Part shown: positions 9,881-59,023 of the stretch, one piece after another
Numbering within the stretch: the first letter of the stretch is position 1
How the letters are laid out: every line of letters starts with the position of its first letter
Source of the DNA: Photorhabdus noenieputensis
Lineage (GTDB): Bacteria > Pseudomonadota > Gammaproteobacteria > Enterobacterales > Enterobacteriaceae
Assembly (NCBI RefSeq): GCF_018448935.1
Contig: NZ_RCWC01000022.1
Span: 1-64,000 of the forward strand
DNA length: 64,000 nucleotides
Direction of reading: 5' to 3'
Program-made: the position numbers and the translations under genes
Notes under the pieces: model-generated
Seen by the model: only the letters and a program-made list of their open reading frames with translations
Told to the model about the DNA's origin: nothing
Database searches by the model: none

Positions 9881-12202
9881 ATGAAGAAAATGCATCGCCT
9901 TATATGGCTGATTGTGCTGTTGTTGTTTCTGATCCCGGCGGGTTTATGGTTGGCAGATAAAATCTGGCCTCTGCCACTGCGTGAAATCAAAATGGCGCGT
10001 ATTGTCGTCAGTGAGGATGGTACGCCGCTTTGGCGTTTTGCCGATGATGAAGGGGTTTGGCGTTATCCGGTGACATTGGATCAAGTATCGCCGGAATATA
10101 TTCAAGCGTTGCTGACTTATGAAGATCGTTGGTTCTACCAGCATCCAGGGATTAACCCGATTTCTCTGGTCAGGGCTGCCTGGCAGGATATTCGGGCAGG
10201 TAAAATTTTATCCGGCGGCAGTACGCTGTCAATGCAGGTGGCCCGGTTGATTGATCCCCATTCACGCACTTTCGGCGGGAAGTTGAAACAGATTTGGCGT
10301 ACTTTGCAGCTTGAATGGCACTATTCCAAAGATGAAATTCTGGAAATGTATCTGAACCGTGCGCCGTTTGGGGGGACGTTACAAGGCGTCGGCGCGGCGA
10401 GTTGGGCATATTTGGCTAAACCGCCCTCTGAACTCTTGGCGGGGGAAGCGGCTTTACTGGCTGTTTTGCCACAGGCCCCTAGTCGTTTAAGGCCAGATCG
10501 CTATCCTGAACGGGCGCAGGCAGCCCGTGATAAGGTGTTGCAACGGTTGGCGCACTACAAAATTTGGCCGGAACAGACGATTGCTGATATTCGGCAGGAG
10601 ACGTTGTGGTTGGCTCCTCGGCAAGCGCCACAGCTTGCCCCGCTTCTTGCCAGACGAATGGCGAAAGGCATTCGTCAGGAGATCATTAAAACAACCTTGG
10701 ATGTGGGATTACAGCGTCAGCTTGAAGATATGGCGGTGAATTGGAAGTACCAGTTACCAGAAAAAACTTCGATTGGCGTGTTAGTGGTTGATCATACAGA
10801 CATGGCGGTGAAAGCCTATATCGGTTCATTGGATCTGCGGGATGATGGCCGTTTTGGTCATGTTGATATGATAAGCTCATGGCGTTCGCCGGGATCAACC
10901 CTGAAACCATTTCTGTATGCAATGGCGCTGGATGATGGGTTGATTCATGGGGAGTCACTGTTACAAGATGTGCCTCGCCGCTTTGATTATTACCGCCCGG
11001 GAAATTTTGACAGCGGCTTTCATGGACCGGTCAGTGCCAGTGAAGCGTTGGTTCGTTCACTGAATTTACCCGCCGTGCAACTGCTTGAAGCTTATGGCGC
11101 TAAGCGGTTTACCGCCCATATGCGTAATGTAGGAACCGTATTGCGTTTTCCGCCCGGCAGTGAACCCAATTTATCATTGATTCTTGGTGGCACGGCAACC
11201 CGGATGGATCAACTGGTGGCGGCTTACTCGGCGTTTGCCCGTCAGGGGAAGGTTTCTCCCCTTAGATTCACCCCACAGCAAAAATTGCGTGATCGGCAAC
11301 TTTTTTCCCCCGGCGCGGCATGGATAGTCAGGCGGATTATGGCTGGAGAGGCTCTGCCGCAACCTGATGATGTGTTACCAGCACAGGTGCCGCTGGCCTG
11401 GAAAACCGGTACTAGCTATGGCTATCGTGATGCTTGGGCTATCGGCTTAAATGCGCGTTATACCATCGGTGTTTGGGTTGGCAGGCCGGACGGCACGCCG
11501 GTTGTTGGGCAGTTCGGCTACGCTACGGCGATTCCTATCATGAATCAGATCAATAACCTGTTACTTGCCAATATGCGAAATGGGGCTAAACGAATCCCGG
11601 TTGATCCACGTCCGGCAAGTGTGAGTCAGGCAATTATCTGTTGGCCGGGAGGGCAGAGTTTACCGAAAGGAGAGAATAATTGCCGTCAACGTCGTCTGAG
11701 CTGGATACTGAATAACACTATTCCGCCTACGCTGCCTGCGGTGGGGCAAGAGGCCATTTCAGGCATCAATGAATTGGTGTGGTTGGATAAGAACGGTTTG
11801 CGCGTGGCTCCTGATTGCCCCGGCGCTCAGGCTAAAAATATCGCTTTATGGCCGATTACCCTCGAATCATGGTTACCGGCACAAGAGAAACGGACGCAGC
11901 GTCTGCCACCGGTTAATCCTCAATGTCCACCGTTGAAATCAGATGAAGCGCCCTTGTTGATCGTGGGTATTCGTAACGGAGATGTATTGAAGCGACTCCC
12001 CGGTTTTGACAGCCTTGATTTACGTATGACAACTCAGGGCGGTAGTGGCGGGCAGCAATGGTGGTTTTTGAATGGAGAGCAGGTAATGACCACAGAAAAG
12101 AATCAGGGATTTGTTCAGATATTGACTCAACCGGGTAAATATCAGCTTAGTGTTTTGGATTCAGGCGGACAGGTTGATGCTGTCAATTTTACTTTGAAGT
12201 AA
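9881..12202 (+). CDS. pbpC: Penicillin-binding protein 1C (bifunctional peptidoglycan synthase)
   Basis: A 773-residue protein. An N-terminal membrane anchor (LIWLIVLLLFLIPAGLWLA) is followed by a GT51 glycosyltransferase domain with the EDRWFYQHPGI motif and SGGSTLSMQVAR. The transpeptidase domain has the serine in PGSTLKPF at about residue 339 and KTGTSYGYRDAW near residue 505, then the C-terminal BiPBP_C domain typical of PbpC. It polymerises and cross-links peptidoglycan in the periplasm. Pairing with the upstream alpha-2-macroglobulin gene is conserved. ATG 9881 is chosen, 7 bp after CAGGA; a TTG at 9878 is also possible. Confidence 0.95.
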   Translation: MKKMHRLIWLIVLLLFLIPAGLWLADKIWPLPLREIKMARIVVSEDGTPLWRFADDEGVWRYPVTLDQVSPEYIQALLTYEDRWFYQHPGINPISLVRAAWQDIRAGKILSGGSTLSMQVARLIDPHSRTFGGKLKQIWRTLQLEWHYSKDEILEMYLNRAPFGGTLQGVGAASWAYLAKPPSELLAGEAALLAVLPQAPSRLRPDRYPERAQAARDKVLQRLAHYKIWPEQTIADIRQETLWLAPRQAPQLAPLLARRMAKGIRQEIIKTTLDVGLQRQLEDMAVNWKYQLPEKTSIGVLVVDHTDMAVKAYIGSLDLRDDGRFGHVDMISSWRSPGSTLKPFLYAMALDDGLIHGESLLQDVPRRFDYYRPGNFDSGFHGPVSASEALVRSLNLPAVQLLEAYGAKRFTAHMRNVGTVLRFPPGSEPNLSLILGGTATRMDQLVAAYSAFARQGKVSPLRFTPQQKLRDRQLFSPGAAWIVRRIMAGEALPQPDDVLPAQVPLAWKTGTSYGYRDAWAIGLNARYTIGVWVGRPDGTPVVGQFGYATAIPIMNQINNLLLANMRNGAKRIPVDPRPASVSQAIICWPGGQSLPKGENNCRQRRLSWILNNTIPPTLPAVGQEAISGINELVWLDKNGLRVAPDCPGAQAKNIALWPITLESWLPAQEKRTQRLPPVNPQCPPLKSDEAPLLIVGIRNGDVLKRLPGFDSLDLRMTTQGGSGGQQWWFLNGEQVMTTEKNQGFVQILTQPGKYQLSVLDSGGQVDAVNFTLK

Positions 12203-12283
12203 ACGATTCAGGTAAAAATGTGATTTGTACGAAAAAATGGTGATTTTCGCTAAGAAAAATTTAATGGAATGTTATGTTTTCTG

Positions 12284-12312
12284 TAGGCAACCGCTATTCG
12301 TGCCCCTATAAT
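12284..12312 (+). promoter_or_regulatory. Predicted sigma-70 promoter of ndk
   Basis: TAGGCA (12284-12289), a 17-bp spacer and a consensus TATAAT (12307-12312), about 110 bp upstream of the ndk start in the gap after pbpC. Confidence 0.6.
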
Positions 12313-12421
12313 CAACGCCGTTTTTATCTCCGCTAAGGTTGCGGAATGAAGTATTAACCGATTAACTTATCGGGAAAAATTAAAATTATCAGTTGCTGAC
12401 AGAAGAACCAAGAGGTTATCC

Positions 12422-12847
12422 ATGACGGTTGAACGTACTTTTTCTATTATTAAGCCTAACGCTGTAAAGAAAAATGCTATTGGGGCGATTTATGCTCGTT
12501 TTGAAAGCGCCGGGTTTAAAATTATTGCCGCCAAAATGCTTCACCTGACCCGTGAACAGGCTGAGGGCTTCTATGCGGAGCACAAAGGCCGTCCTTTCTT
12601 TGATGGTCTGGTGGAATTTATGACTTCTGGTCCAATTATGGTTCAGGTGTTGGAAGGTGAGAATGCAGTACAGCGTCATCGTGACCTGATGGGGGCAACT
12701 AATCCTGATAATGCATTAGCAGGTACTCTGCGCGCCGATTACGCGGATAGCTTCACTGAAAACGCGGTTCACGGCTCTGACGCGGTTGAATCTGCAAACC
12801 GTGAAATTGCTTATTTCTTCACAGACGATGAAATTTGCCCACGTTAA
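12422..12847 (+). CDS. ndk: Nucleoside diphosphate kinase
   Basis: A 141-residue protein, full length for the family. The phosphate-accepting histidine is H117 in [11 protein letters not shown]. The N-terminal [10 protein letters not shown] strand and [22 protein letters not shown] region are typical. It transfers gamma-phosphates between nucleoside di- and triphosphates to balance cytoplasmic NTP/dNTP pools. The ribosome site AGAGG lies 8 bp before the ATG. It is a single-gene unit with its own promoter and a strong terminator at 12899. Confidence 0.98.
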
Positions 12848-22382: not shown

Positions 22383-23513
22383 TTACTCTTCAGTTTTATC
22401 TTTATTTTTATCTTTATTTTTGTCTTTATCGCCTTTGTCTCCGCCCTTATCGTCTTTATCTTCCTTCACTTTAACGCCCACTTCTGTCCAGCTATCAATT
22501 GTTGCTTTTTCAACATCCTCATCAAATAACTCACGAGCATGTTTAATTGTTAACTTGGCGAAAGATACGAAATTAGCATCTCGGGCAAGATCTTTATCCA
22601 ACAATGTGTTGTACCATATTTTTCCTGCTTTCTCCCAGGAATATCCACCTAATTTTGTCGCCAGATTATAGAAGGCTTTATTAGGAATACCTGAATTAAT
22701 ATGAACTCCACCATTGTCTCTATAAATCGGCAGATCTTTATAATTATCCATATGACCAGGCTGTGGATCTTTACCGAGAGCTTCATCATCATATGCGCTG
22801 CCGGGGTTTTTCATTGAACGAATCCCTACACCTTTAATATCTTTGCCCAGTAATCCACTACCTATAATCCAATCTGCTTCGTCAGCTTTTTGTTTTAGAT
22901 AATGTTGTTTTACTAATGAGCCAAAAACATCTGCTATTGATTCATTCAACGCGCCAGACTGGAAGAAATAGACCAGATCCGCTGTTTTCTCAATAACGCC
23001 ATGAGATAATTCATGGCCTATCACATCAATAGATGTCGTGAAATCATTGAAGGTTTTGCCATCTCCGTCGCCAAATACCATTTGTCCGTTGCCCCAGAAT
23101 GCATTCATATATTCTTCGCCATAATGCACAGTGGCAATCAATTTCATTCCTTTATCATCTAATGAGTTGCGATTGAAAACTTCTTTATAGAAATTGTAAG
23201 TTGCTTCTAAATATCTATATGCGTTATCAACTGATTTATCTCCGTTATCTGGATCTCCTTCATCTCGTACTAATTTTCCTGGCAACTTGCGTTTATTTTC
23301 TGCATCGTGAATAGAACGATGTATAGTTGTATTGGTAACTTTATCGTCATCGCCGGAATCATCGGAAGATTCTCTAATAACATTGTCCAACATTAAACTC
23401 TGAGTATGATTTAATGTCATTAATACTTTCTTCTTTTCATTGTCATTATTATAAATATTTTGAAGAATGTACGGCGGTATTACGCCTCTGTAGTTATTGT
23501 TTTGTATTTGCAT
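22383..23513 (-). CDS. prtS: Protealysin-like M4 (thermolysin family) metalloprotease, PrtS type
   Basis: A 376-residue protein. The zinc site is HELSH (H167, H171) with the third ligand E191 in NESIADVFG. The catalytic histidine is H271 in NGGVHINSG. A short N-terminal propeptide carries the PPYIL motif characteristic of protealysins, and there is no signal peptide, as in that subgroup. The last 35 or so residues form a low-complexity Lys/Asp tail with KDKN repeats not seen in classical thermolysins. In Photorhabdus, PrtS is a secreted protease that triggers melanization in insects; assignment to PrtS is from family and genus context. Downstream lies its presumptive inhibitor gene. Confidence 0.88.
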   Translation of the reverse strand: MQIQNNNYRGVIPPYILQNIYNNDNEKKKVLMTLNHTQSLMLDNVIRESSDDSGDDDKVTNTTIHRSIHDAENKRKLPGKLVRDEGDPDNGDKSVDNAYRYLEATYNFYKEVFNRNSLDDKGMKLIATVHYGEEYMNAFWGNGQMVFGDGDGKTFNDFTTSIDVIGHELSHGVIEKTADLVYFFQSGALNESIADVFGSLVKQHYLKQKADEADWIIGSGLLGKDIKGVGIRSMKNPGSAYDDEALGKDPQPGHMDNYKDLPIYRDNGGVHINSGIPNKAFYNLATKLGGYSWEKAGKIWYNTLLDKDLARDANFVSFAKLTIKHARELFDEDVEKATIDSWTEVGVKVKEDKDDKGGDKGDKDKNKDKNKDKTEE

Positions 23514-44375: not shown

Positions 44376-44451
44376 GGGCGATTAGCTCAGTTGGTAGAGC
44401 ATCTCCCTTACAAGGAGGGGGTCATCAGTTCGAATCTGGTATCGCCCACCA
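44376..44451 (+). tRNA. valU: tRNA-Val(TAC)
   Basis: 76 nt, GGGCGATTAGCTCAGTTGG... to ATCGCCCACCA; anticodon TAC in CTTACAA. First of three identical valine tRNAs. Confidence 0.97.
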
Positions 44452-44481
44452 TCTCGTTGTGATAAGAATGATTTTATGATT

Positions 44482-44557
44482 GGGCGATTAGCTCAGTTGG
44501 TAGAGCATCTCCCTTACAAGGAGGGGGTCATCAGTTCGAATCTGGTATCGCCCACCA
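44482..44557 (+). tRNA. valX: tRNA-Val(TAC)
   Basis: Identical 76-nt copy, anticodon TAC, CCA encoded, 30 bp after the first. Confidence 0.97.
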
Positions 44558-44600
44558 ATCATAAATTCAGTGGTATAAGCAGTAATAGTCATCATGAAGT

Positions 44601-44676
44601 GGGCGATTAGCTCAGTTGGTAGAGCATCTCCCTTACAAGGAGGGGGTCATCAGTTCGAATCTGGTATCGCCCACCA
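44601..44676 (+). tRNA. valY: tRNA-Val(TAC)
   Basis: Identical third copy, anticodon TAC, CCA encoded. Confidence 0.97.
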
Positions 44677-44719
44677 CTTCATTAAGATTGTTTCAGGCGG
44701 TATCACATATCTTTGGTGC

Positions 44720-44795
44720 GGGTCGTTAGCTCAGTCGGTAGAGCAGTTGACTTTTAATCAATTGGTCGCAGGTTCGAATCCTGCACGACCCACCA
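44720..44795 (+). tRNA. lysV: tRNA-Lys(TTT)
   Basis: 76 nt, GGGTCGTTAGCTCAGTCGG... to CACGACCCACCA; anticodon TTT in CTTTTAA. Intact. Confidence 0.97.
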
Positions 44796-44830
44796 CTCCC
44801 AAAGATATTCAGAGTAGTTCTCCTATAGAT

Positions 44831-44906
44831 GGGTCGTTAGCTCAGTCGGTAGAGCAGTTGACTTTTAATCAATTGGTCGCAGGTTCGAATCCTGCACGAC
44901 CCACCA
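44831..44906 (+). tRNA. tRNA-Lys(TTT)
   Basis: Identical second intact lysine copy. The spacer after it (TCTCAAAAAGATAAAATTGC) is related to the spacer at 45806, showing that the array once continued with more Lys units. Confidence 0.97.
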
Positions 44907-44945
44907 TCTCAAAAAGATAAAATTGCATAATCTAATCATACAGAC

Positions 44946-45003
44946 GGGTCGTTAGCTTAGTCGGTAGAGCAGTTGACTTTTAATCAATGGATCGCAGGTT
45001 CGA
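44946..45003 (+). pseudogene. tRNA-Lys pseudogene, 5' part (third unit, split)
   Basis: The first 58 nt of a lysine tRNA up to GGTTCGA in the T-loop, with some substitutions (GCTTAG in the D-arm, CAATGGATCG). The missing 18 nt (ATCCTGCACGACCCACCA) are found at 45788-45805. 58 plus 18 equals a full 76-nt tRNA, so the gene was split by a clean insertion without loss or target duplication. Confidence 0.9.
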
Positions 45004-45008
45004 GCCGA

Positions 45009-45043
45009 GCGAAGCGAGACAACAGCGCGTGAGCGCTGGCCCG
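45009..45043 (+). repeat. 35-bp structured repeat, copy A
   Basis: Identical to 45905-45939. It contains the hairpin CAGCGC-GTGA-GCGCTG (perfect 6-bp stem with a GNRA-type tetraloop). In both copies it starts five to six nt after the tRNA T-loop breakpoint. It looks like the end of a small mobile or REP-like element. Confidence 0.85.
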
Positions 45044-45055
45044 ATATGAATATTA

Positions 45056-45086
45056 AAGGCCATCGGATGGTTAATCCGATGACCTT
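45056..45086 (-). terminator. Predicted terminator of the DinQ-like toxin mRNA
   Basis: AAGG-C-CATCGGAT, loop GGTTA, ATCCGATG-A-CCTT: a 12-bp stem with one mismatch, followed on the minus strand by TAATATTC. It lies 17 bp beyond the toxin stop codon. Confidence 0.65.
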
Positions 45087-45103
45087 AGCTACGTTTCCGT
45101 TAT

Positions 45104-51836: not shown

Positions 51837-51966
51837 TATACCCGTTATTTTTCAAGTTGCCTCTTTAGTTGGCTGCACTCGCTCACCCCGGTCACATAGT
51901 TCGCTATGTTCTCGGGGATTTGCTCCCTTGCCGTCTTGATGCATCTTGAAATCCATAGGGGGTAGT
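51837..51966 (-). repeat. ERIC element, copy 7
   Basis: Reverse orientation: TATACCCGTTATTTTTCAAG to ATCCATAGGGGGTAGTA; slightly longer than 127 bp because of small changes at the end. Core CCCCGGTCACATAG/CTATGTTCTCGGGG. Confidence 0.85.
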
Positions 51967-52277: not shown

Positions 52278-52404
52278 TATACCCGTCATCTTTCAAGTTG
52301 CTTCTTTGTTGGCTGCACTCACTCACCCCGGTCACATAGTTATCTATGCTCCCGGGGATTCGCTCCTTTGCCGCCGCGATGCATCTTGAAATCCATAGGG
52401 TATA
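52278..52404 (-). repeat. ERIC element, copy 8 (127 bp, complete)
   Basis: Reverse orientation: TATACCCGTCATCTTTCAAG to ATCCATAGGGTATA; core CCCCGGTCACATAG/CTATGCTCCCGGGG. Confidence 0.9.
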
Positions 52405-52764: not shown

Positions 52765-53997
52765 ATGAAAAATTTTTCTCTTAATAGTTATACATCCATA
52801 CCGGCATGTATATGGGGTCTATTTGTTGGGACTTTTGTAACAAGATCAACATCAATGATGGTATGGCCTTTTATATCTATCATACTATATACAAAGTTTC
52901 ATTTTACTGCATCGATGATTGGATTAGTTCTCTCTTTATCCATTGCGATTTCATCAATATTAAGTTTTTATGCTGGTTACTTCTCTGATAAAGTCGGCCG
53001 AGCTAAGATAATCATCATTGGATGTCTTATATCTTCATTGGCATATTTAATATTATGGTTATCTGAACATCAGTCTGGTTTTATTATTGGTACTTTGTTA
53101 GCGAATATTTCTTGGGCGCTGGTGAATAACCCAATAAAAGCTGTTATCGGTGATGTTATTGAGGAAAAGCAGGTAAGAGAGAATGCCATGTACTTAAGGT
53201 ATTTATTTCTTAATGCGGGTGCGGTAGTCGGGCCTTATTTAGGCGTAAAATTAAGTTTGGATATTAATTCTATCTCTTTTTTGATTGTTTCGGTGTCCTA
53301 TGTAATTTTTATGATCCCTGTTTATCTATTTGGCAAGAAAATAAAAATAAACTTAACAAATAATGATGACTTTAAAGGAACGATAAAGGTTTTATTGAAT
53401 GATCGTGTGTTTTTAATGTTGGTCGTAAACAATATTCTCATGATGTTTATTTTTGGCCATTTTGATTCAACTTTGCCACAGTTAATTACTTCATTAGGGT
53501 TTAATGGGTATGCTGAGTTTATTGCTTCGCTTATTATGTTACATGCGATAACCATTGTTGTTATGCAGTTGCCGTTTTCCATGTTAACGCAAAAAATGGC
53601 GTTAGAAACTAAAATAAATATAGGGTCTGTATTACTCATTTTATCTGAATTAATGTTCTTTATTTCATTCAAGTATTATGATGTTTATTTATTATGGTAT
53701 ATAGCCGCATTTACCATGAGTATCAGTCAAACTATTTTGTTTCCATGTGTGAATGTTTTTATCGATCGTTTGGCACCAAATGATTTACGTGGCGCATATT
53801 TTGGTGCGGCGTCACTTTATAGTATCGGTTTTTCCATATCTCCATTGGTTGGTGGTACTATTATCCAATTATTTGATGGTGGAATGTTATTTCAATTATT
53901 AGCTATATTAAGTGTGTTGATGTTGGTAATTTTCTGTCGGATGTTTAAACTAAGGGATAAACATGAAATTAATATTAGAAGAAGTCTCAAATCTTAG
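52765..53997 (+). CDS. Major facilitator superfamily exporter
   Basis: A 410-residue protein with about twelve hydrophobic segments. The MFS loop-2/3 motif is GYFSDKVGRAKIIIIGCL near residues 71-88; a second half begins after a basic linker near residue 205. It resembles drug/H+ antiporters of the MdtG/SetA-like type. As first gene of the cluster it is a good candidate for export of, and self-protection from, the product. Its end overlaps the next gene by 35 bp, showing close coupling. Substrate inferred only from context. Confidence 0.82.
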   Translation: MKNFSLNSYTSIPACIWGLFVGTFVTRSTSMMVWPFISIILYTKFHFTASMIGLVLSLSIAISSILSFYAGYFSDKVGRAKIIIIGCLISSLAYLILWLSEHQSGFIIGTLLANISWALVNNPIKAVIGDVIEEKQVRENAMYLRYLFLNAGAVVGPYLGVKLSLDINSISFLIVSVSYVIFMIPVYLFGKKIKINLTNNDDFKGTIKVLLNDRVFLMLVVNNILMMFIFGHFDSTLPQLITSLGFNGYAEFIASLIMLHAITIVVMQLPFSMLTQKMALETKINIGSVLLILSELMFFISFKYYDVYLLWYIAAFTMSISQTILFPCVNVFIDRLAPNDLRGAYFGAASLYSIGFSISPLVGGTIIQLFDGGMLFQLLAILSVLMLVIFCRMFKLRDKHEINIRRSLKS

Positions 53998-54358
53998 ACC
54001 AACTGAATTACATTGTTCTATTCGTGTCGAGCAGTTAATAGAGAAAGTTAAACTTGAAGGTTTTTGGACTCAACCAATCTGGATTGATGAAACAACGAAT
54101 GTGGTTATTGATGGTCATCATAGACTTGAATTAGCCAAAATACTAAAATTAAATTGTATTCCTTGTTTGGCATTTGATTATGAGAAGGAACTATTGGTTT
54201 ATTCCCGCAATGAGGGTAAAACAATTAGTCATAGTGATGTTATTAAGGCGGGTTTGGATGGGCAACCTCTTGGTTATAAACAGACTCGTCATGAATTTGC
54301 CGGGAATGTTATTGAAACACAAATTTCGTTAAAAATGTTAGGGTTTGTCAATGAATAA
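53963..54358 (+). CDS. Small ParB/Srx-fold protein, SerK/SbnI-like (possible serine kinase)
   Basis: A 131-residue protein with the ParB/sulfiredoxin-fold signature NVVIDGHHRLELAKILKLN around residues 46-64 (DGHHR motif). The same motif occurs in SbnI and archaeal SerK, which phosphorylate free L-serine to O-phosphoserine. Those are about 240-250 residues, so this is a minimal single-domain version. Ribosome site AGGGAT 6 bp before ATG 53963; overlaps the MFS gene and the next gene. In this cluster a source of O-phosphoserine would make sense (see findings). A DNA-binding ParB-like regulator is the alternative. Confidence 0.6.
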   Translation: MKLILEEVSNLRPTELHCSIRVEQLIEKVKLEGFWTQPIWIDETTNVVIDGHHRLELAKILKLNCIPCLAFDYEKELLVYSRNEGKTISHSDVIKAGLDGQPLGYKQTRHEFAGNVIETQISLKMLGFVNE

Positions 54359-55547
54359 GCAGTTTTATGATGTGGTAATGTGTGGTGCGGGGCCTGCAAA
54401 TATTTCATTAATCCCGGATTTATTAAAAGATGAAGCCATAAAAAATTGTCTGATTTTAGAAAAAACAGAGATGGTTGGTTCTGGTTCATTAAAGAAATAT
54501 AAAATTACCGCGAACTCTTTAGGTAGTGTATTTTTAGAGAAATTTGATGGTTGTGATGATGAACTTAGTCAGTATATAAGATCAACATCGGAATGGGAAT
54601 ATTTTAGTGCCAATAAAGATAAGCCAGTTGAATTGAGGTTTGTCGGTCAATATTTGGAGAGAATTGCACGCTTTATTCAGGAAAATAAATATGGTGATCG
54701 GTTTGATGTTTTTACTGCTGCGGAAGTAAAAAAGATTAAGCGGAATGAAGAGGGTAACTATGATATAACTTACCGTAAAAATAATGAAGATTATATTGTA
54801 TCAGCACGAAAGGTACTGTTTAATATAGGTGGAGATCCAAACCAATCCAGATTATTGCATAATAGTAATAATATTACCTCTGGTGATTTCATTAAAGGTT
54901 TTTATGATGAGGTTATAAATAAAGGTGATGTAAAAAGTATATCAATATTGGGTTCGTCACACAGTTCTGTTTCTTGTTTGATTAGGCTGATAGAGCAATT
55001 AGAATTTACAGGAAAAATAAATGTTTTCGTGAATAAAGATTTCAAATTGTTTTTTGATTCGCCTTCAAGCGCAGAATCTTACGGCTATGATTTCACACAG
55101 GAAGATATTTGCCCTTTAAGTAACCGAGTTAATAGGTATTCAGGATTAAGATATGATTCTTTTGCTTTTGCACAAGAACTTAAAGAAAGAAAATATAAGA
55201 ATATTTCTATCTTAAATATTTCAGAAATTTCTGATGATGAAGTTATTAAACTCATTAACTGCGATGATTTACTTATTCATTGTACTGGCTATCACTCTAA
55301 ACTTGTTGAAATAATTAATGAAAATAATACTGCTATTGAATTTAAAAGTGATAGATACGGTTTGCTAACTAATGAAAAATTAAATCCTATATCAACGTCA
55401 GGTGACGCGCTCAATAATTTTCACACATTCGGTCTGGGATCGGGTGTAAAGACGGGTGGTGAAAATGGTGGAGAGGCAAGCTTTCATGGAAGAATTGACG
55501 GGGTTTGGGTATATCAGCATGTTATATATGACATCGTATTTAATTAA
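54351..55547 (+). CDS. FAD-dependent N-hydroxylating monooxygenase (SidA/IucD/FrbG-like)
   Basis: A 398-residue flavoprotein. The FAD-binding loop is VVMCGAGPANISLIPDLL near residues 8-25. A NADPH-binding region is SISILGSSHSSVSCLIRL near residue 200, and the C-terminal flavin-contact segment is FHTFGLGSGVKTGGENGGEA. This is the class B N-hydroxylating monooxygenase layout that oxidises primary amines of lysine, ornithine or, in FrbG, a CMP-activated aminoalkylphosphonate. ATG 54351 (MNKQFYDVV) is chosen, with AGGG 8 bp upstream, overlapping the previous gene by 8 bp. Amine substrate inferred to be the product of the next gene's enzyme. Confidence 0.72.
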   Translation: MNKQFYDVVMCGAGPANISLIPDLLKDEAIKNCLILEKTEMVGSGSLKKYKITANSLGSVFLEKFDGCDDELSQYIRSTSEWEYFSANKDKPVELRFVGQYLERIARFIQENKYGDRFDVFTAAEVKKIKRNEEGNYDITYRKNNEDYIVSARKVLFNIGGDPNQSRLLHNSNNITSGDFIKGFYDEVINKGDVKSISILGSSHSSVSCLIRLIEQLEFTGKINVFVNKDFKLFFDSPSSAESYGYDFTQEDICPLSNRVNRYSGLRYDSFAFAQELKERKYKNISILNISEISDDEVIKLINCDDLLIHCTGYHSKLVEIINENNTAIEFKSDRYGLLTNEKLNPISTSGDALNNFHTFGLGSGVKTGGENGGEASFHGRIDGVWVYQHVIYDIVFN

Positions 55548-55618
55548 TATTTAATTCAATATCAAATTAAGAATAAAAATAACCTTTTAACATCCATTTA
55601 AAATAATTTATTAAGACT

Positions 55619-57475
55619 ATGAATAAAAAAACAGCAATCCTTCTCTGTGCCGGAAGAGGCAGCAGATTATCAACTAGAACATCAAATAAACCAAAACCTT
55701 TGGTAGAAACAAATCAGATATCATTTATCGATAATGCGCTGAGGAATATCGAGTCTGTCGGTATTAAACAGGTTATTATTGTGGTGGGTTATAAGAGAGA
55801 TGTTTTAATGTCTCATATTAAACAAAGCTCATATAACTTGCATATTGAATTTGTTAATAGCGATAAATGGGAATCGACGAATAATATCTATTCTTTATAT
55901 CTCGCTAGAAATTGGATTAAGAAAGATACTCTGATTCTTGAAGGAGATATCTTCTTTACTAAGAAATGCTTGGAAATTGTCATGTTAAAAGCGGGAGATC
56001 TCAATGTACTTGTTTCTCCTCTGAGCCAAAATATGGAAGGAACTTATGCAAAAGTCGATAATGGTAATATCGTTGTGCTAAATTCCACCAAAGATAACAA
56101 CTATCAGGTTGAAGCAGGTCAATATAAGACGGTAAATATTTATAATATTTGCACCGCTAATTTTGCTGAATATGTTACTAAAGAGCTAGAAAGTTACGTT
56201 GATGGTGGATCGACTGGGTTATATTATGAGGATATATTTAAACACTCTTTACTGAATAATGTGGCTGAATTTAAAGCAAGTATTGTTGATAATTCTCAAT
56301 GGTATGAGGTAGATAATACTTATGATCTGGCTATTTGTGACTTCATTTCAAGCAATAATAAATTAGATCTTGTGCAAAATAGGCATGGTGGTTACTGGCG
56401 TTATCCTATTATTGACTTTGGCTTAATTTACAATTTCAACTTTCCACCTAAGAAATTGAAAGATGAAATAAAGAATAATTTTGATGAAATATTGTTAAAT
56501 TATCCTGGCGGGAATAGTTTAGTCGAGCATGCTTTATCTGAATTTATAGGGGTAGAGAGAACGCAATTATGTATTTCGAATGGCGCTGCTGAGATAATTA
56601 AACGGCTGCCTGATGTTTATAAGGGTAAAGTATTAGTCACGGTACCGTCATTTAATGAATATGCTAATTGCTTTGGTAAAGACAGAGCAATATTTAGCTA
56701 TAGTAAAGAGAGCAGAGATTTTGATATAGATATTGATGAACTATTAACGTTAGCGAAAGAAGAAAGGCCAAATGTGGTGGTACTTGAATCACCTAATAAT
56801 CCGACAGGTAAATTGACGCCTATTGATAGTCTGTTATATTTGGCTGGCGAATTGTTGACATTAAATATCGATTTAATTGTTGATGAATCTTTCTTAGATT
56901 TCTCTAAAATGCGTGATGACACAATGTTAAAGCATTTAGATAACTATAAGAATTTATCTGTTATTCGCAGCATGAGTAAAACTTTTGGCATTGGTGGTAT
57001 TCGTATCGGGTATATTGCCACTGCAAATCAGGAATTACTTGGTAAAATAAGAGCAGTGTTACCCATTTGGAATATGAATGGTTTTGCTGAAGAGTTTTTA
57101 TTGAGATTACCTCAATATAGAGAGAGTTATAAATTAAGTTGTGAAAAAGTGATTAGTGATACGTTAAAATTACAGCAGGAATTAAACTCAATCGAGGGTA
57201 TTACCGCATTTGAGACAGATTCTAATTTTGTTTACTGTAAACTACACATTTCTGATGCAAAGACGATATCACGGTTACTATTAGATATTCATGGGCTGTA
57301 TGTGAAAGAGTGCTCTGGCAAAGGAAATGCAGACTCTGATATGTATTTGCGTATTTCTTGCAGAACACCAAGCGATAATGAAATTTTAATACGTTCATTG
57401 CGTATGGTGATGCAGGGGCTAATTAATATTAGTGATATTAGCGTGGTTAAGGAAGTTAACGAGGCTTGCGAATGA
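55619..57475 (+). CDS. Nucleotidyltransferase fused to a HisC/CobD-like PLP enzyme (FrbH-like)
   Basis: A 618-residue two-domain protein. Residues 1-240: sugar/choline-phosphate-type nucleotidyltransferase with AILLCAGRGSRLSTRTSNKP (GxGxR..KPK), LEGDIFF and WYEVDNTYDL. Residues 255-610: fold-type I PLP domain with ESPNNPTGKL, VDESFLDF and the Schiff-base lysine at K454 in SMSKTFGIGGIRIGY, as in histidinol-phosphate aminotransferases and the threonine-phosphate decarboxylase CobD. The same fusion occurs in FrbH of FR-900098 synthesis, which attaches CMP to an amino acid phosphonate and decarboxylates it. Here the likely substrate is O-phosphoserine, giving CMP-phosphoethanolamine; that is inference. 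The stop overlaps the next start (ATGA). Confidence 0.8.
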   Translation: MNKKTAILLCAGRGSRLSTRTSNKPKPLVETNQISFIDNALRNIESVGIKQVIIVVGYKRDVLMSHIKQSSYNLHIEFVNSDKWESTNNIYSLYLARNWIKKDTLILEGDIFFTKKCLEIVMLKAGDLNVLVSPLSQNMEGTYAKVDNGNIVVLNSTKDNNYQVEAGQYKTVNIYNICTANFAEYVTKELESYVDGGSTGLYYEDIFKHSLLNNVAEFKASIVDNSQWYEVDNTYDLAICDFISSNNKLDLVQNRHGGYWRYPIIDFGLIYNFNFPPKKLKDEIKNNFDEILLNYPGGNSLVEHALSEFIGVERTQLCISNGAAEIIKRLPDVYKGKVLVTVPSFNEYANCFGKDRAIFSYSKESRDFDIDIDELLTLAKEERPNVVVLESPNNPTGKLTPIDSLLYLAGELLTLNIDLIVDESFLDFSKMRDDTMLKHLDNYKNLSVIRSMSKTFGIGGIRIGYIATANQELLGKIRAVLPIWNMNGFAEEFLLRLPQYRESYKLSCEKVISDTLKLQQELNSIEGITAFETDSNFVYCKLHISDAKTISRLLLDIHGLYVKECSGKGNADSDMYLRISCRTPSDNEILIRSLRMVMQGLINISDISVVKEVNEACE

Positions 57476-58146
57476 ATAATCCTAAAACAGTGGTAATTTG
57501 TGGTAAAGGAGAATTGGCAATTTTCATTTGTCAATATTTCTTAAATCATAAAGAGTATAAAATATCGCACGTGGTGGCAGATAAATTCGAACCTGTAAGT
57601 ACTGATCAGACGTTAATCGATTTCTGTTATCAAAATAATATTTCTGTTATTGAAGATAATAAGGTCGAAAATCTACCAGGCTATGAAAGTGGCGATTTCA
57701 CTTGCGATTTATGTTTTGTCGTATTTCATAAGCGGATATTGCCTTTAAAATTCATTAATTCGTGTAAGAAAATATTAAATATCCATCTCTCTTATTTGCC
57801 TAAATATCGAGGTGTAAGACCGGTTAATTGGGCTTTGAAAAATGGAGAACAGTCGCATGGCGTGACGATCCATGAAATCAACGAAGGTATTGATGCCGGG
57901 CCGATTGTGAATCAGATCTCGTTTTCTATTTATCCTGAATTTGAAGAGGTCATTGATACTTATACACGGGCTATTAGCTATGCCAGACAATTATTCCTTG
58001 ACACGATGCTAATATTGGAAAAAATAACACCAAGACCTCAGATTGATTCAGAGGCAACAATTTATTATGAAAAGGATAATCATAGTCTGGAAGAAAGGAT
58101 GACATTTACCAAGCAGGCATCGCGCGAATTGCTTAATAAAGCTTAG
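57472..58146 (+). CDS. Formyltransferase (10-formyl-THF-dependent type)
   Basis: A 224-residue protein with the catalytic Asn-His-Asp set of the GART/Fmt fold: NIHLSYLPKYRGVRPVNWAL (N and the P-rich loop), GVTIHEINEGIDAGPIVNQ (H and D). Only the catalytic domain is present; no tRNA-binding domain. It should move a formyl group to an amine, here most likely a hydroxylamine made by the upstream monooxygenase. ATG 57472 overlaps the previous stop; GAGG 8 bp upstream. The longer open frame from a TTG at 57466 is not needed. Confidence 0.85.
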   Translation: MNNPKTVVICGKGELAIFICQYFLNHKEYKISHVVADKFEPVSTDQTLIDFCYQNNISVIEDNKVENLPGYESGDFTCDLCFVVFHKRILPLKFINSCKKILNIHLSYLPKYRGVRPVNWALKNGEQSHGVTIHEINEGIDAGPIVNQISFSIYPEFEEVIDTYTRAISYARQLFLDTMLILEKITPRPQIDSEATIYYEKDNHSLEERMTFTKQASRELLNKA

Positions 58147-58177
58147 ATGATAATTGCCTTTAACACTGGAACGCCCT

Positions 58178-58990
58178 ATGTACAATCTCATTGCCACAGA
58201 TCTCGATGGAACGCTTCTCCTTCAAGGAGATACAATTGGTAAGTTTACCCGCAAGGTGCTGACTGATTTATCAAGTATGGGAAAGCAGATCGTATTTGCA
58301 ACCGGTAGGCATCATGCTGATGTAAATTCCATTATTGGTGATTTTGATATACCTGTGCATTTGATCACTTCGAATGGCGCTAGATTAACCAGTGCTTGTA
58401 AAAATCTGGATATCAGACAACATTTGCCAAGTCACATCGTAAAAAGAGTGATTGAAGAAACTCAGGCAGATAATGATTTAGTGATCAATATGTATTGTGG
58501 TTCTCAATGGTTAACCAATGTAGAAAATCATAATTTTAGCGATTTTAGTCAGAATGATAATTTTAATCCAACATTCAAGCATGTTGATGAAATGCCTTGT
58601 GATGCGGTTGAAAAAGTTTTTTTCATTCATAAGAGTAGAAATCATGATGCATTGGTTAAATTAGAGCGTCATTTAATTGATCTCTTTTCTGATAATGTCA
58701 GTGTTGCTTTTTCATTCCCTTGGTGTCTGGAGGTAATGGGGAGTGGTGTTTCCAAGGGGCAAGCTTTAATTCAGCTCGCTGGTTTTCTTGGTATCCCAAT
58801 TAATAAAACGATTGCGTTTGGTGACGGTATGAATGATGTAGAAATGCTTTCAACCGTAGCTAAAGGGGTCATAATGGGAACGGCGCATAATAGGGTCAAA
58901 CAAGCTCTTCCTGATGCCGATATTATTGGCTCTTGCTGTGAAGAGTCTGTGGCTTATTATTTATCTGAACATGTGTGTCAGGTGAAATAA
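58178..58990 (+). CDS. Cof/YigL-like HAD-superfamily phosphatase
   Basis: A 270-residue HAD-IIB hydrolase: motif I DLDGTLL near residue 8, motif II TGRHH, motif III lysine in SKGQAL, motif IV FGDGMNDVEML. It follows the E. coli YigL pattern closely (VFATGRHH, LITSNGAR, CLEVMGSGVSKG). YigL removes phosphate from small metabolites including pyridoxal phosphate and sugar phosphates. It is 31 bp downstream of the formyltransferase on the same strand, so it may dephosphorylate a pathway intermediate or be a separate housekeeping gene. ATG 58178 matches the family start. Confidence 0.85.
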   Translation: MYNLIATDLDGTLLLQGDTIGKFTRKVLTDLSSMGKQIVFATGRHHADVNSIIGDFDIPVHLITSNGARLTSACKNLDIRQHLPSHIVKRVIEETQADNDLVINMYCGSQWLTNVENHNFSDFSQNDNFNPTFKHVDEMPCDAVEKVFFIHKSRNHDALVKLERHLIDLFSDNVSVAFSFPWCLEVMGSGVSKGQALIQLAGFLGIPINKTIAFGDGMNDVEMLSTVAKGVIMGTAHNRVKQALPDADIIGSCCEESVAYYLSEHVCQVK

Positions 58991-59023
58991 GCGGATCTCA
59001 GCTTTGCTGAGAGGTGTTAATTG

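What the first reader, a model, noticed from the sequence alone, without database searches (positions are those of the whole stretch)
52765..58990. Candidate biosynthetic cluster for a fosfoxacin/fosmidomycin-like phosphate antimetabolite
Sequence shows, in one direction with overlaps: MFS exporter, SerK-like ParB-fold protein, N-hydroxylating flavin monooxygenase, nucleotidyltransferase fused to a CobD/HisC-like PLP domain, formyltransferase, HAD phosphatase. Known: in FR-900098 synthesis FrbH (same fusion) attaches CMP and decarboxylates, FrbG N-hydroxylates, and an acyltransferase then acts; fosmidomycin is the N-formyl analogue; fosfoxacin is the natural phosphate-ester analogue. Inference: serine to O-phosphoserine, CMP-phosphoserine, CMP-phosphoethanolamine, N-hydroxy, N-formyl, then release, giving 2-(N-formyl-N-hydroxyamino)ethyl phosphate or its CMP form, an expected inhibitor of the MEP-pathway enzyme DXR. 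No PEP mutase gene is present in the window, which favours a phosphate over a phosphonate.
Basis: partly seen in the sequence, partly recalled or inferred. Interest (0 to 1): 0.85.

Follow-up and report, generated by a model that had tools for sequence, protein, structure and literature searches.

The report
Likely fosfocytocin/fosfoxacin antibiotic gene cluster
A six-gene operon in an insect-associated Photorhabdus bacterium probably makes fosfocytocin or fosfoxacin, antibiotics found in Pseudomonas in 1990 that block isoprenoid synthesis, and a matching operon turns up in some Pseudomonas, so an old orphan antibiotic may now have its genes.

Summary
The six genes are real, on one strand, overlapping or closely spaced. 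The window is from Photorhabdus. The block MFS-[SerK-like]-FMO-CTase/CobD fusion-formyltransferase recurs in order in 8 named Photorhabdus records (one with a split fusion gene), Photobacterium galatheae and 4 named Pseudomonas, and in an unnamed Pseudomonas. The window's genome shows no PEP mutase. A diverged relative on Priestia megaterium plasmid pBM700 has an AAC(3)-type acyltransferase instead of the formyltransferase and a DXR gene beside it, pointing to DXR as target. Searches of the held library listed no paper on biosynthetic genes for these compounds. Two roles stay open: the SerK-like protein is short and absent from the Pseudomonas clusters; the HAD survives under purifying selection in three Photorhabdus genomes lacking the rest, fitting immunity as well as release. 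Nothing biochemical was shown; fold prediction could not be run.

The parts
52765..53997 (+). MFS exporter (predicted product export)
   Evidence: PF07690 1.5e-40; present in 13 of 13 cluster records and in L109
53963..54358 (+). Short ParB-fold, SerK/SbnI-like protein, 131 aa; possible free-serine kinase, role unproven
   Evidence: NCBIfam SerK 1.3e-6 but 27.7 bits against cut-off 380; profile of 10 orthologues: 7 PDB matches up to E=1, 6 named free serine kinase or SbnI, the best (0.011) a 242-aa 'conserved hypothetical protein'; the single sequence also weakly matches a ParB, 0.33; PTE and DGHHR motifs invariant in 10 sequences
54351..55547 (+). FAD/NAD(P)H N-hydroxylating monooxygenase (predicted)
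   Evidence: PF13434 marginal, matched by 17 of 17 alignment members at E<=0.01; GxGP motif and the G-x-S-H-S positions invariant in 17 sequences
55619..57475 (+). Fusion: CTP-type cytidylyltransferase (residues about 1-240) and CobD/phosphoserine-decarboxylase-like PLP domain (about 265-600)
   Evidence: PDB: N-terminal LicC 2.9e-13, C-terminal 6oux 2.4e-35 and CobD 1.6e-21; NCBIfam CobD 2.6e-48, 164.9 bits, below its cut-off 290.55; K26 and K454 invariant in 13 sequences
57472..58146 (+). Formyl-tetrahydrofolate-type N-formyltransferase (predicted)
   Evidence: PF00551 2.2e-23; N103, H105 and D141 invariant in 8 sequences
58178..58990 (+). Cof-type HAD-IIB phosphatase; cluster-linked; release or immunity
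   Evidence: PF08282 4e-52; follows the formyltransferase in 8 of 8 Photorhabdus and 4 of 4 Pseudomonas records, not in Photobacterium; retained in 3 of 3 Photorhabdus genomes without the fusion
58996..59012 (+). Terminator-like hairpin after the HAD gene
   Evidence: consensus scan only; 2 sites found in the region against 4.0 expected in shuffles, so no statistical support

Best explanation
The operon makes fosfocytocin (N-formyl-N-hydroxy-CDP-ethanolamine) and/or its CMP-free form fosfoxacin (2-(N-formyl-N-hydroxyamino)ethyl phosphate). Inferred steps: O-phosphoserine (from normal serine synthesis, perhaps topped up by the SerK-like protein) is capped with CMP by the N-terminal domain of the fusion and decarboxylated by its PLP domain to CDP-ethanolamine; the flavoenzyme N-hydroxylates the amine; the formyltransferase adds formyl; the MFS protein exports the product. 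The CMP cap probably keeps the compound harmless to the producer's single DXR. The HAD phosphatase either trims the product or destroys the toxic phosphate as self-protection. The free phosphate mimics fosmidomycin and inhibits DXR. Shown here: gene content, conservation, invariant likely active-site residues, no PEP mutase found in the genome, formula identity. Inferred: every enzymatic step, the product and the target in this organism.
For: Domains and invariant residues; by motif, Lys26 corresponds to the Lys whose Ala mutant abolishes FrbH cytidylyltransfer (my reading of PMC6697681 passages). No PEP mutase in the own genome. Conserved order in Photorhabdus, Photobacterium and Pseudomonas. 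Fosfocytocin formula in PMC12748000 (passages) equals CDP-ethanolamine + CO + O (the CDP-ethanolamine formula is recalled). Fosfoxacin is the alpha-oxa analogue of fosmidomycin, from P. fluorescens, and inhibits Synechocystis DXR with Ki 19 nM (PMC9782300 and PMC9919496 passages). The Priestia relative carries a DXR gene and an AAC(3)-type acyltransferase. Low dN/dS in the five core genes.
Against: No product or enzyme activity shown. The formula comes from a docking study; the 1990 structure paper was not read, only cited in papers I saw, and equal formula is not equal structure. Two papers I saw class these compounds with phosphonates (PMC13302981 names fosfadecin; PMC10707747 cites the 1990 paper so). 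The FMO match is marginal, and no chain named FrbG was found by sequence or profile. The window's cluster has no DXR copy, and 16 of 16 host or kin genomes searched carry one dxr. Genuine PEP mutases exist on other contigs of 2 of the 12 cluster-bearing genomes. Fusion relatives also sit in surface-glycan and PepM settings. In the tree the FMO-linked fusions are not one exclusive clade. E. coli DXR is only modestly inhibited by fosfoxacin (PMC9919496 passage).
Confidence: 0.72

Rival explanations
1. A phosphonate hydroxamate: the fusion caps and decarboxylates a phosphonate amino acid (such as phosphonoalanine) supplied by a PEP mutase elsewhere, giving a phosphonate relative of FR-900098.
For: FrbH acts on a phosphonate (PMC6697681 passage); split relatives of the fusion sit beside an annotated PEP mutase in Bradyrhizobium; 2 cluster-bearing Photorhabdus genomes hold genuine EDKxxxxxNS PEP mutases.
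Against: No PEP mutase in the window's own genome. In 12 other cluster-bearing genomes (7 Photorhabdus, 1 Photobacterium, 4 Pseudomonas) there were 40 PF13714 rows; the motif was in 2 of the 30 fetched loci, both Photorhabdus, on contigs of other lengths than the cluster's. The 10 rows without a locus (9 Pseudomonas, 1 Photorhabdus) were not read.
Confidence: 0.08
2. A cell-surface or lipid decoration pathway using a CDP-linked N-formyl-N-hydroxy-ethanolamine head group, not a diffusible antibiotic.
For: Fusion relatives occur with LicD and glycosyltransferases in Gloeothece and with a CDP-alcohol transferase in Erwinia and Rahnella.
Against: No transferase that would use a CDP-alcohol is among the six genes; an MFS gene is in all 13 cluster records; flanks differ between genera (by eye); the Priestia relative carries DXR.
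Confidence: 0.08
3. Same enzymology but a different end product, for example a threonine-derived (1-aminopropan-2-ol) homologue or a further modified relative of fosfocytocin.
For: The PLP domain's best NCBIfam match is threonine-phosphate decarboxylase CobD (2.6e-48, below cut-off); the SerK-like protein is a weak match to serine kinases.
Against: The best PDB match is 6oux, which I recall to be the enzyme that makes ethanolamine phosphate for norcobamides; the serine-derived product exactly matches the formula of a known Pseudomonas antibiotic.
Confidence: 0.1

Closest known systems
Fosfocytocin / fosfoxacin (Pseudomonas fluorescens, Katayama 1990)
   Same: Predicted CMP product has exactly the listed fosfocytocin formula; predicted phosphate equals fosfoxacin; the operon occurs in Pseudomonas
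   Different: Compounds not shown in Photorhabdus; the producer strains' genomes were not at hand; no biosynthetic genes in the literature listings
FR-900098 late pathway (FrbF, FrbG, FrbH) of Streptomyces rubellomurinus
   Same: Cytidylyltransferase acting on an amino-acid-like acid (FrbH), flavin N-hydroxylation of a CMP-linked amine (FrbG); the PLP fusion, decarboxylation and FrbF acylation are from the finding or recall, not from a call
   Different: No PEP mutase and no C-P bond expected; formyl instead of acetyl; ethyl phosphate instead of propyl phosphonate; FMO not recognisably FrbG by sequence
pBM700 cluster of Priestia megaterium QM B1551
   Same: FMO (39% over 410 aa) and fusion (43% over 596 aa), with MFS and HAD genes nearby
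   Different: AAC(3)-type acyltransferase instead of formyltransferase, two ATP-grasp ligases, and a DXR gene
SerK / SbnI free-serine kinases
   Same: Weak SerK profile match; 6 of the profile's 7 PDB matches are named free serine kinase or SbnI
   Different: 131 aa rather than 242-256; far below the family cut-off; absent from Pseudomonas clusters

Membership tests
Fosfocytocin/fosfoxacin biosynthesis | Gene content able, by predicted function, to build N-formyl-N-hydroxy-CDP-ethanolamine | tested here: met
   CTase, PLP decarboxylase-like, FMO and formyltransferase in one operon; formula equality
Fosfocytocin/fosfoxacin biosynthesis | Present in the producer genus Pseudomonas | tested here: met
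   4 named records; 4 of 398 Pseudomonas genomes with close FMO orthologues, 3 of them genomes of those records
Fosfocytocin/fosfoxacin biosynthesis | Product made and lost on gene deletion | not testable with these tools
   needs culture, LC-MS and 31P NMR
FR-900098 (Frb) phosphonate pathway | PEP mutase | tested here: not met
   (own genome)
FR-900098 (Frb) phosphonate pathway | CTase-PLP fusion (FrbH architecture) | tested here: met
   architecture and CTase Lys motif; that FrbH is such a fusion is taken from the finding; FrbH sequence not available for comparison
FR-900098 (Frb) phosphonate pathway | FrbG-type flavin monooxygenase | tested here: inconclusive
   no chain named FrbG found by phmmer or profile; fold prediction never ran
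FR-900098 (Frb) phosphonate pathway | Extra DXR copy as self-resistance (dxrB, recalled) | tested here: not met
   single dxr in 16 of 16 genomes; a DXR gene is beside the relative on pBM700
SerK free-serine kinase (NF053625) | Score above curated cut-off and full-length domain | tested here: not met
   27.7 bits against 380; matches profile positions 17-92 of 244
YigL (sugar/pyridoxal phosphatase, NF008213) | Score above curated cut-off | tested here: not met
   240.2 bits against 386; the own genome has a second, 40% identical HAD elsewhere

The most novel reading that the evidence does not exclude
There is a family of PEP-mutase-independent 'phosphate hydroxamate' antimetabolite clusters, built on an FMO plus a CTase-decarboxylase fusion, that make fosmidomycin mimics from O-phosphoserine: a formyl type in Photorhabdus, Photobacterium and Pseudomonas (fosfocytocin/fosfoxacin) and an acyl type with its own DXR on a Priestia plasmid. 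In Photorhabdus the HAD gene is an immunity phosphatase that is kept after the synthesis genes are lost.
Probability: 0.4. Interest if true: 0.85.

Novelty: new variant of a known kind. Interest (0 to 1): 0.77.

Why it matters
Fosfoxacin and fosfocytocin have been known since 1990, and the passages I saw about them give no genes. A compact operon of five or six genes with an exact formula match makes their biosynthesis directly testable. It would show that nature reaches fosmidomycin-type DXR inhibitors without C-P bond chemistry, starting from O-phosphoserine. Genome mining that looks for PEP mutase would miss such clusters. It also offers a genetic handle on how such a toxic phosphate is capped, exported and tolerated by hosts in which I found only one DXR gene.

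Tried and rejected
Phosphonate reading tested by searching PF13714 in the own genome and in 12 other cluster-bearing genomes, then the EDKxxxxxNS motif: own genome negative; 2 of 12 genomes positive, on contigs of 14,614 and 430,496 bases, whereas their clusters lie on contigs of 134,165 and 168,002. 10 of the 40 rows had no locus and were not read.

A second DXR as self-resistance in the window's host: not found, one copy in 16 of 16 genomes (the own genome, 12 other cluster-bearing ones and 3 without the fusion); L019's genome was not held.

DXR on plasmid records as a control: 52 of 72,556 records hold a DXR-like gene at E<=1e-30, many of the listed ones chromosome-sized; apart from pBM700 itself every one is under 60% identical to the pBM700 protein. 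Whether the Priestia chromosome has its own dxr was not tested.

HAD as an unrelated resident gene (a YigL orthologue): I first suspected this because 3 Photorhabdus genomes without the fusion keep it. Weakened by formyltransferase traces just upstream of it in all three, by its place in the Pseudomonas clusters, and by no listed match above 42% identity in the other 118 of 119 family genomes at E<=1e-50. Against: at protein level the traces are weak (one match of E 5e-9 that runs into the HAD gene, two of E 0.15-0.22), no other cluster gene left a trace there, and a 45% match elsewhere in Photobacterium is ambiguous.

Distant FMO homologues in 34 of 398 Pseudomonas genomes: surroundings of 4 of the 34 were read (L107, L108, L110, L111), with no other cluster gene, so set aside.

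Tree of 15 fusions: the Photorhabdus, Photobacterium and Pseudomonas rows form one supported group (100/99); Priestia joins at 90/93, not fully supported; Erwinia and Rahnella group with a relative that had no FMO match in its locus, so FMO linkage has no single clean origin there. Long branches make the deep part unsure.

Promoter scan: 28 sites against 37.6 expected, uninformative; terminator scan 2 against 4.0.

Paper searches for the biosynthetic genes listed none by title or abstract start; passages were read in 12 papers, no paper whole. The library lacks most subscription papers, so prior publication is not excluded.
Full report
WHAT IS THERE. The six genes at 52765-58990 exist as described (sequence). 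Neighbouring genes overlap or are separated by 31 bp (formyltransferase-HAD) to 71 bp (FMO-fusion), all on the + strand, between seqA-pgm and kdpE/kdpD (names of the flanks are mine, from the translations). The five-gene block without the HAD is poor in G+C, 0.329 against 0.432 for the rest of the window.

IDENTITY OF THE PARTS. MFS exporter: PF07690 1.5e-40. SerK-like protein: no Pfam hit, NCBIfam SerK 1.3e-6 but 27.7 bits against a cut-off of 380. A profile of 10 orthologues has 7 PDB matches up to E=1: the best (0.011) is a 242-aa 'conserved hypothetical protein', the other 6 are named free serine kinase or SbnI; the single sequence also touches a ParB at 0.33. FMO: PF13434 at 20.9 bits, just under the cut-off of 21.3; all 17 alignment members, itself included, match at E<=0.01. 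Fusion: N-terminal half to LicC phosphocholine cytidylyltransferase (2.9e-13), C-terminal half best to 6oux, named threonine-phosphate-decarboxylase-like (2.4e-35), then others, CobD at 1.6e-21. I recall that 6oux is SMUL_1544 of Sulfurospirillum, which makes ethanolamine phosphate for norcobamides; papers of which I read passages tie SMUL_1544 to norcobamide synthesis but not to this PDB entry. Formyltransferase: PF00551 2.2e-23 with the Asn-His-Asp triad invariant in 8 sequences (triad roles recalled). HAD: Cof-type, under the cut-off of YigL.

THE GENOME. Two genomes that the tool calls 'same genus' have contigs of the same length as P. khanii and P. thracensis records (400,173 and 5,147,098 bases), so the window is Photorhabdus. 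The fusion is in 9 of 12 genomes of the genus, the own one included; in the P. thracensis one the gene is split by about 1.1 kb. PF13714 has two matches in the window's own genome, with KRCGH and KKCGH motifs, so (recalled) PrpB and isocitrate lyase rather than PEP mutase (the EDKxxxxxNS criterion is from PMC6697681, passages). In 12 other cluster-bearing genomes there were 40 rows; the 30 with a locus were scanned and 2, both Photorhabdus, carry the true motif, on contigs whose lengths differ from the cluster's.

DISTRIBUTION. A scan of genome contigs gave 20 loci. Thirteen hold MFS, FMO, fusion and formyltransferase in the same order: 8 Photorhabdus (one with the split fusion gene), Photobacterium galatheae, and Pseudomonas sp. 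PB106, sp. H1h, P. tehranensis and P. piscis. Identities to the window are 61-76% (Photobacterium) and 49-66% (Pseudomonas) for these four genes. The SerK-like gene is in 9 of 9 Photorhabdus and Photobacterium records and 0 of 4 Pseudomonas; the HAD follows in 8 of 8 Photorhabdus and 4 of 4 Pseudomonas but not in Photobacterium. A fifth, unnamed Pseudomonas (G742) has the Pseudomonas layout. The other seven loci have fusion-like, split or only CTase genes and no FMO match. The FMO was found in 2 of 149 genomes of the window's family (both in the genus), 1 of 369 of its class (the own one) and, as a close orthologue, in 4 of 398 Pseudomonas, 3 of them genomes of the named records. So the block is rare but shared by three distant genera, which suggests horizontal transfer (inference; I saw no mobile gene in it).

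CHEMISTRY. The four core activities applied to O-phosphoserine give N-formyl-N-hydroxy-CDP-ethanolamine. Its formula, CDP-ethanolamine plus CO plus O, is C12H20N4O13P2, 490.25 g/mol. PMC12748000, a docking study, lists fosfocytocin with exactly this formula and mass (passage). Fosfoxacin is described as the alpha-oxa analogue of fosmidomycin isolated from P. fluorescens (PMC9782300 and PMC9919496, passages), which is the CMP-free form. It inhibits Synechocystis DXR with Ki 19 nM and has an MIC of 0.2 ug/mL on Micrococcus luteus, but is only modest on E. coli DXR. That the known producers are pseudomonads and that the operon is in pseudomonads are independent facts that agree. The 1990 structure paper itself was not read, and PMC13302981 counts fosfadecin among phosphonates (passage), which the alpha-oxa description does not fit.

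TARGET. On plasmid pBM700 of Priestia megaterium an FMO (39% over 410 aa) and a fusion (43% over 596 aa) flank an AAC(3)-type acyltransferase (annotated so, below NCBIfam cut-offs), and 0.66 kb after the fusion lies a DXR gene. This DXR passes TIGR00243 and PRK12464 cut-offs and aligns with solved DXRs over 376 residues. No PF13714 match is on pBM700. A target gene inside a cluster is a usual mark of self-resistance; I recall the same (dxrB) for FR-900098, from no call. The relation to the window's cluster is distant, so this is support by analogy, and a chromosomal dxr of that strain was not looked for. The window's host and kin have one dxr each, 16 of 16, so their protection must be different: export, the CMP cap, or the HAD (inference).

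THE HAD. Three Photorhabdus genomes without the fusion (G150-G152) keep the HAD after pgm. Upstream of it lie traces like the formyltransferase gene: in two, about 103 bp at 73% (gene end and spacer) plus a shorter inner match, in the third 129 bp at 63% (best E 8e-15, 8e-15 and 1e-8). Protein-level matches there are weak and no other cluster gene left a trace. The simplest reading is that the cluster was there and was lost; arrival next to a resident HAD is not excluded. The HAD is still under purifying selection (dN/dS 0.061 between two of these genomes, 0.125-0.183 against the window). A gene kept after loss of the pathway is what an immunity gene would look like, but a separate housekeeping use is also possible.

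SELECTION. The other five genes have dN/dS 0.045-0.201 in 3 Photorhabdus comparisons; I used 3 of the 8 available records.

WHAT THIS DOES NOT SHOW. No activity, product or target was measured. The fusion type also occurs in surface-glycan, lipid and PEP-mutase settings, so it is not diagnostic alone. FrbG and FrbH sequences were not at hand. The fold prediction service was busy at all 13 attempts. The idea that the SerK-like protein feeds the pathway is plausible (SbnI is a precedent, cited in PMC12704722, passages) but it is not needed in Pseudomonas if the product is the same; that paper also reports CTP binding by a SerK-like protein, so another role is possible.

VERDICT. A probable fosfocytocin/fosfoxacin cluster: known compound class, FR-900098-like late logic, but a phosphate route without PEP mutase. 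No report of these genes was listed in the held library. Classed as a new variant of a known kind, interest 0.77.

Noticed in passing
L045 (G533:C173) and L046 (G537:C71): Two cluster-bearing Photorhabdus genomes carry different genuine PEP mutases (EDKxxxxxNS) on other contigs, so some Photorhabdus probably make separate phosphonates.
   Followed up: partly
L016:8986-18715 and L017: Erwinia rhapontici and Rahnella sikkimica plasmids hold a third cluster type: FMO, fusion, CDP-alcohol transferase, HAD, AAC(3)-FkbH fusion, SDR, ATP-grasp, MFS.
   Followed up: partly
L030 about 11338-12431: In P. thracensis the fusion gene is split by about 1.1 kb of other sequence.
   Followed up: no
window 51837-51960 and 52278-52400: Two copies of a direct repeat of about 124 bp, 89% identical, between pgm and the operon.
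   Followed up: no
window 22383-23513 (-): A 376-aa thermolysin-like (M4-type by eye) metalloprotease in a G+C-poor stretch.
   Followed up: no
L128:5373-12894: A gallidermin/nisin-type lantibiotic cluster lies close to the DXR-bearing cluster on Priestia plasmid pBM700.
   Followed up: no
window 44376-45091: Tandem tRNA-Val and tRNA-Lys genes followed by an RtT RNA match, 45.7 bits against a cut-off of 45.
   Followed up: no
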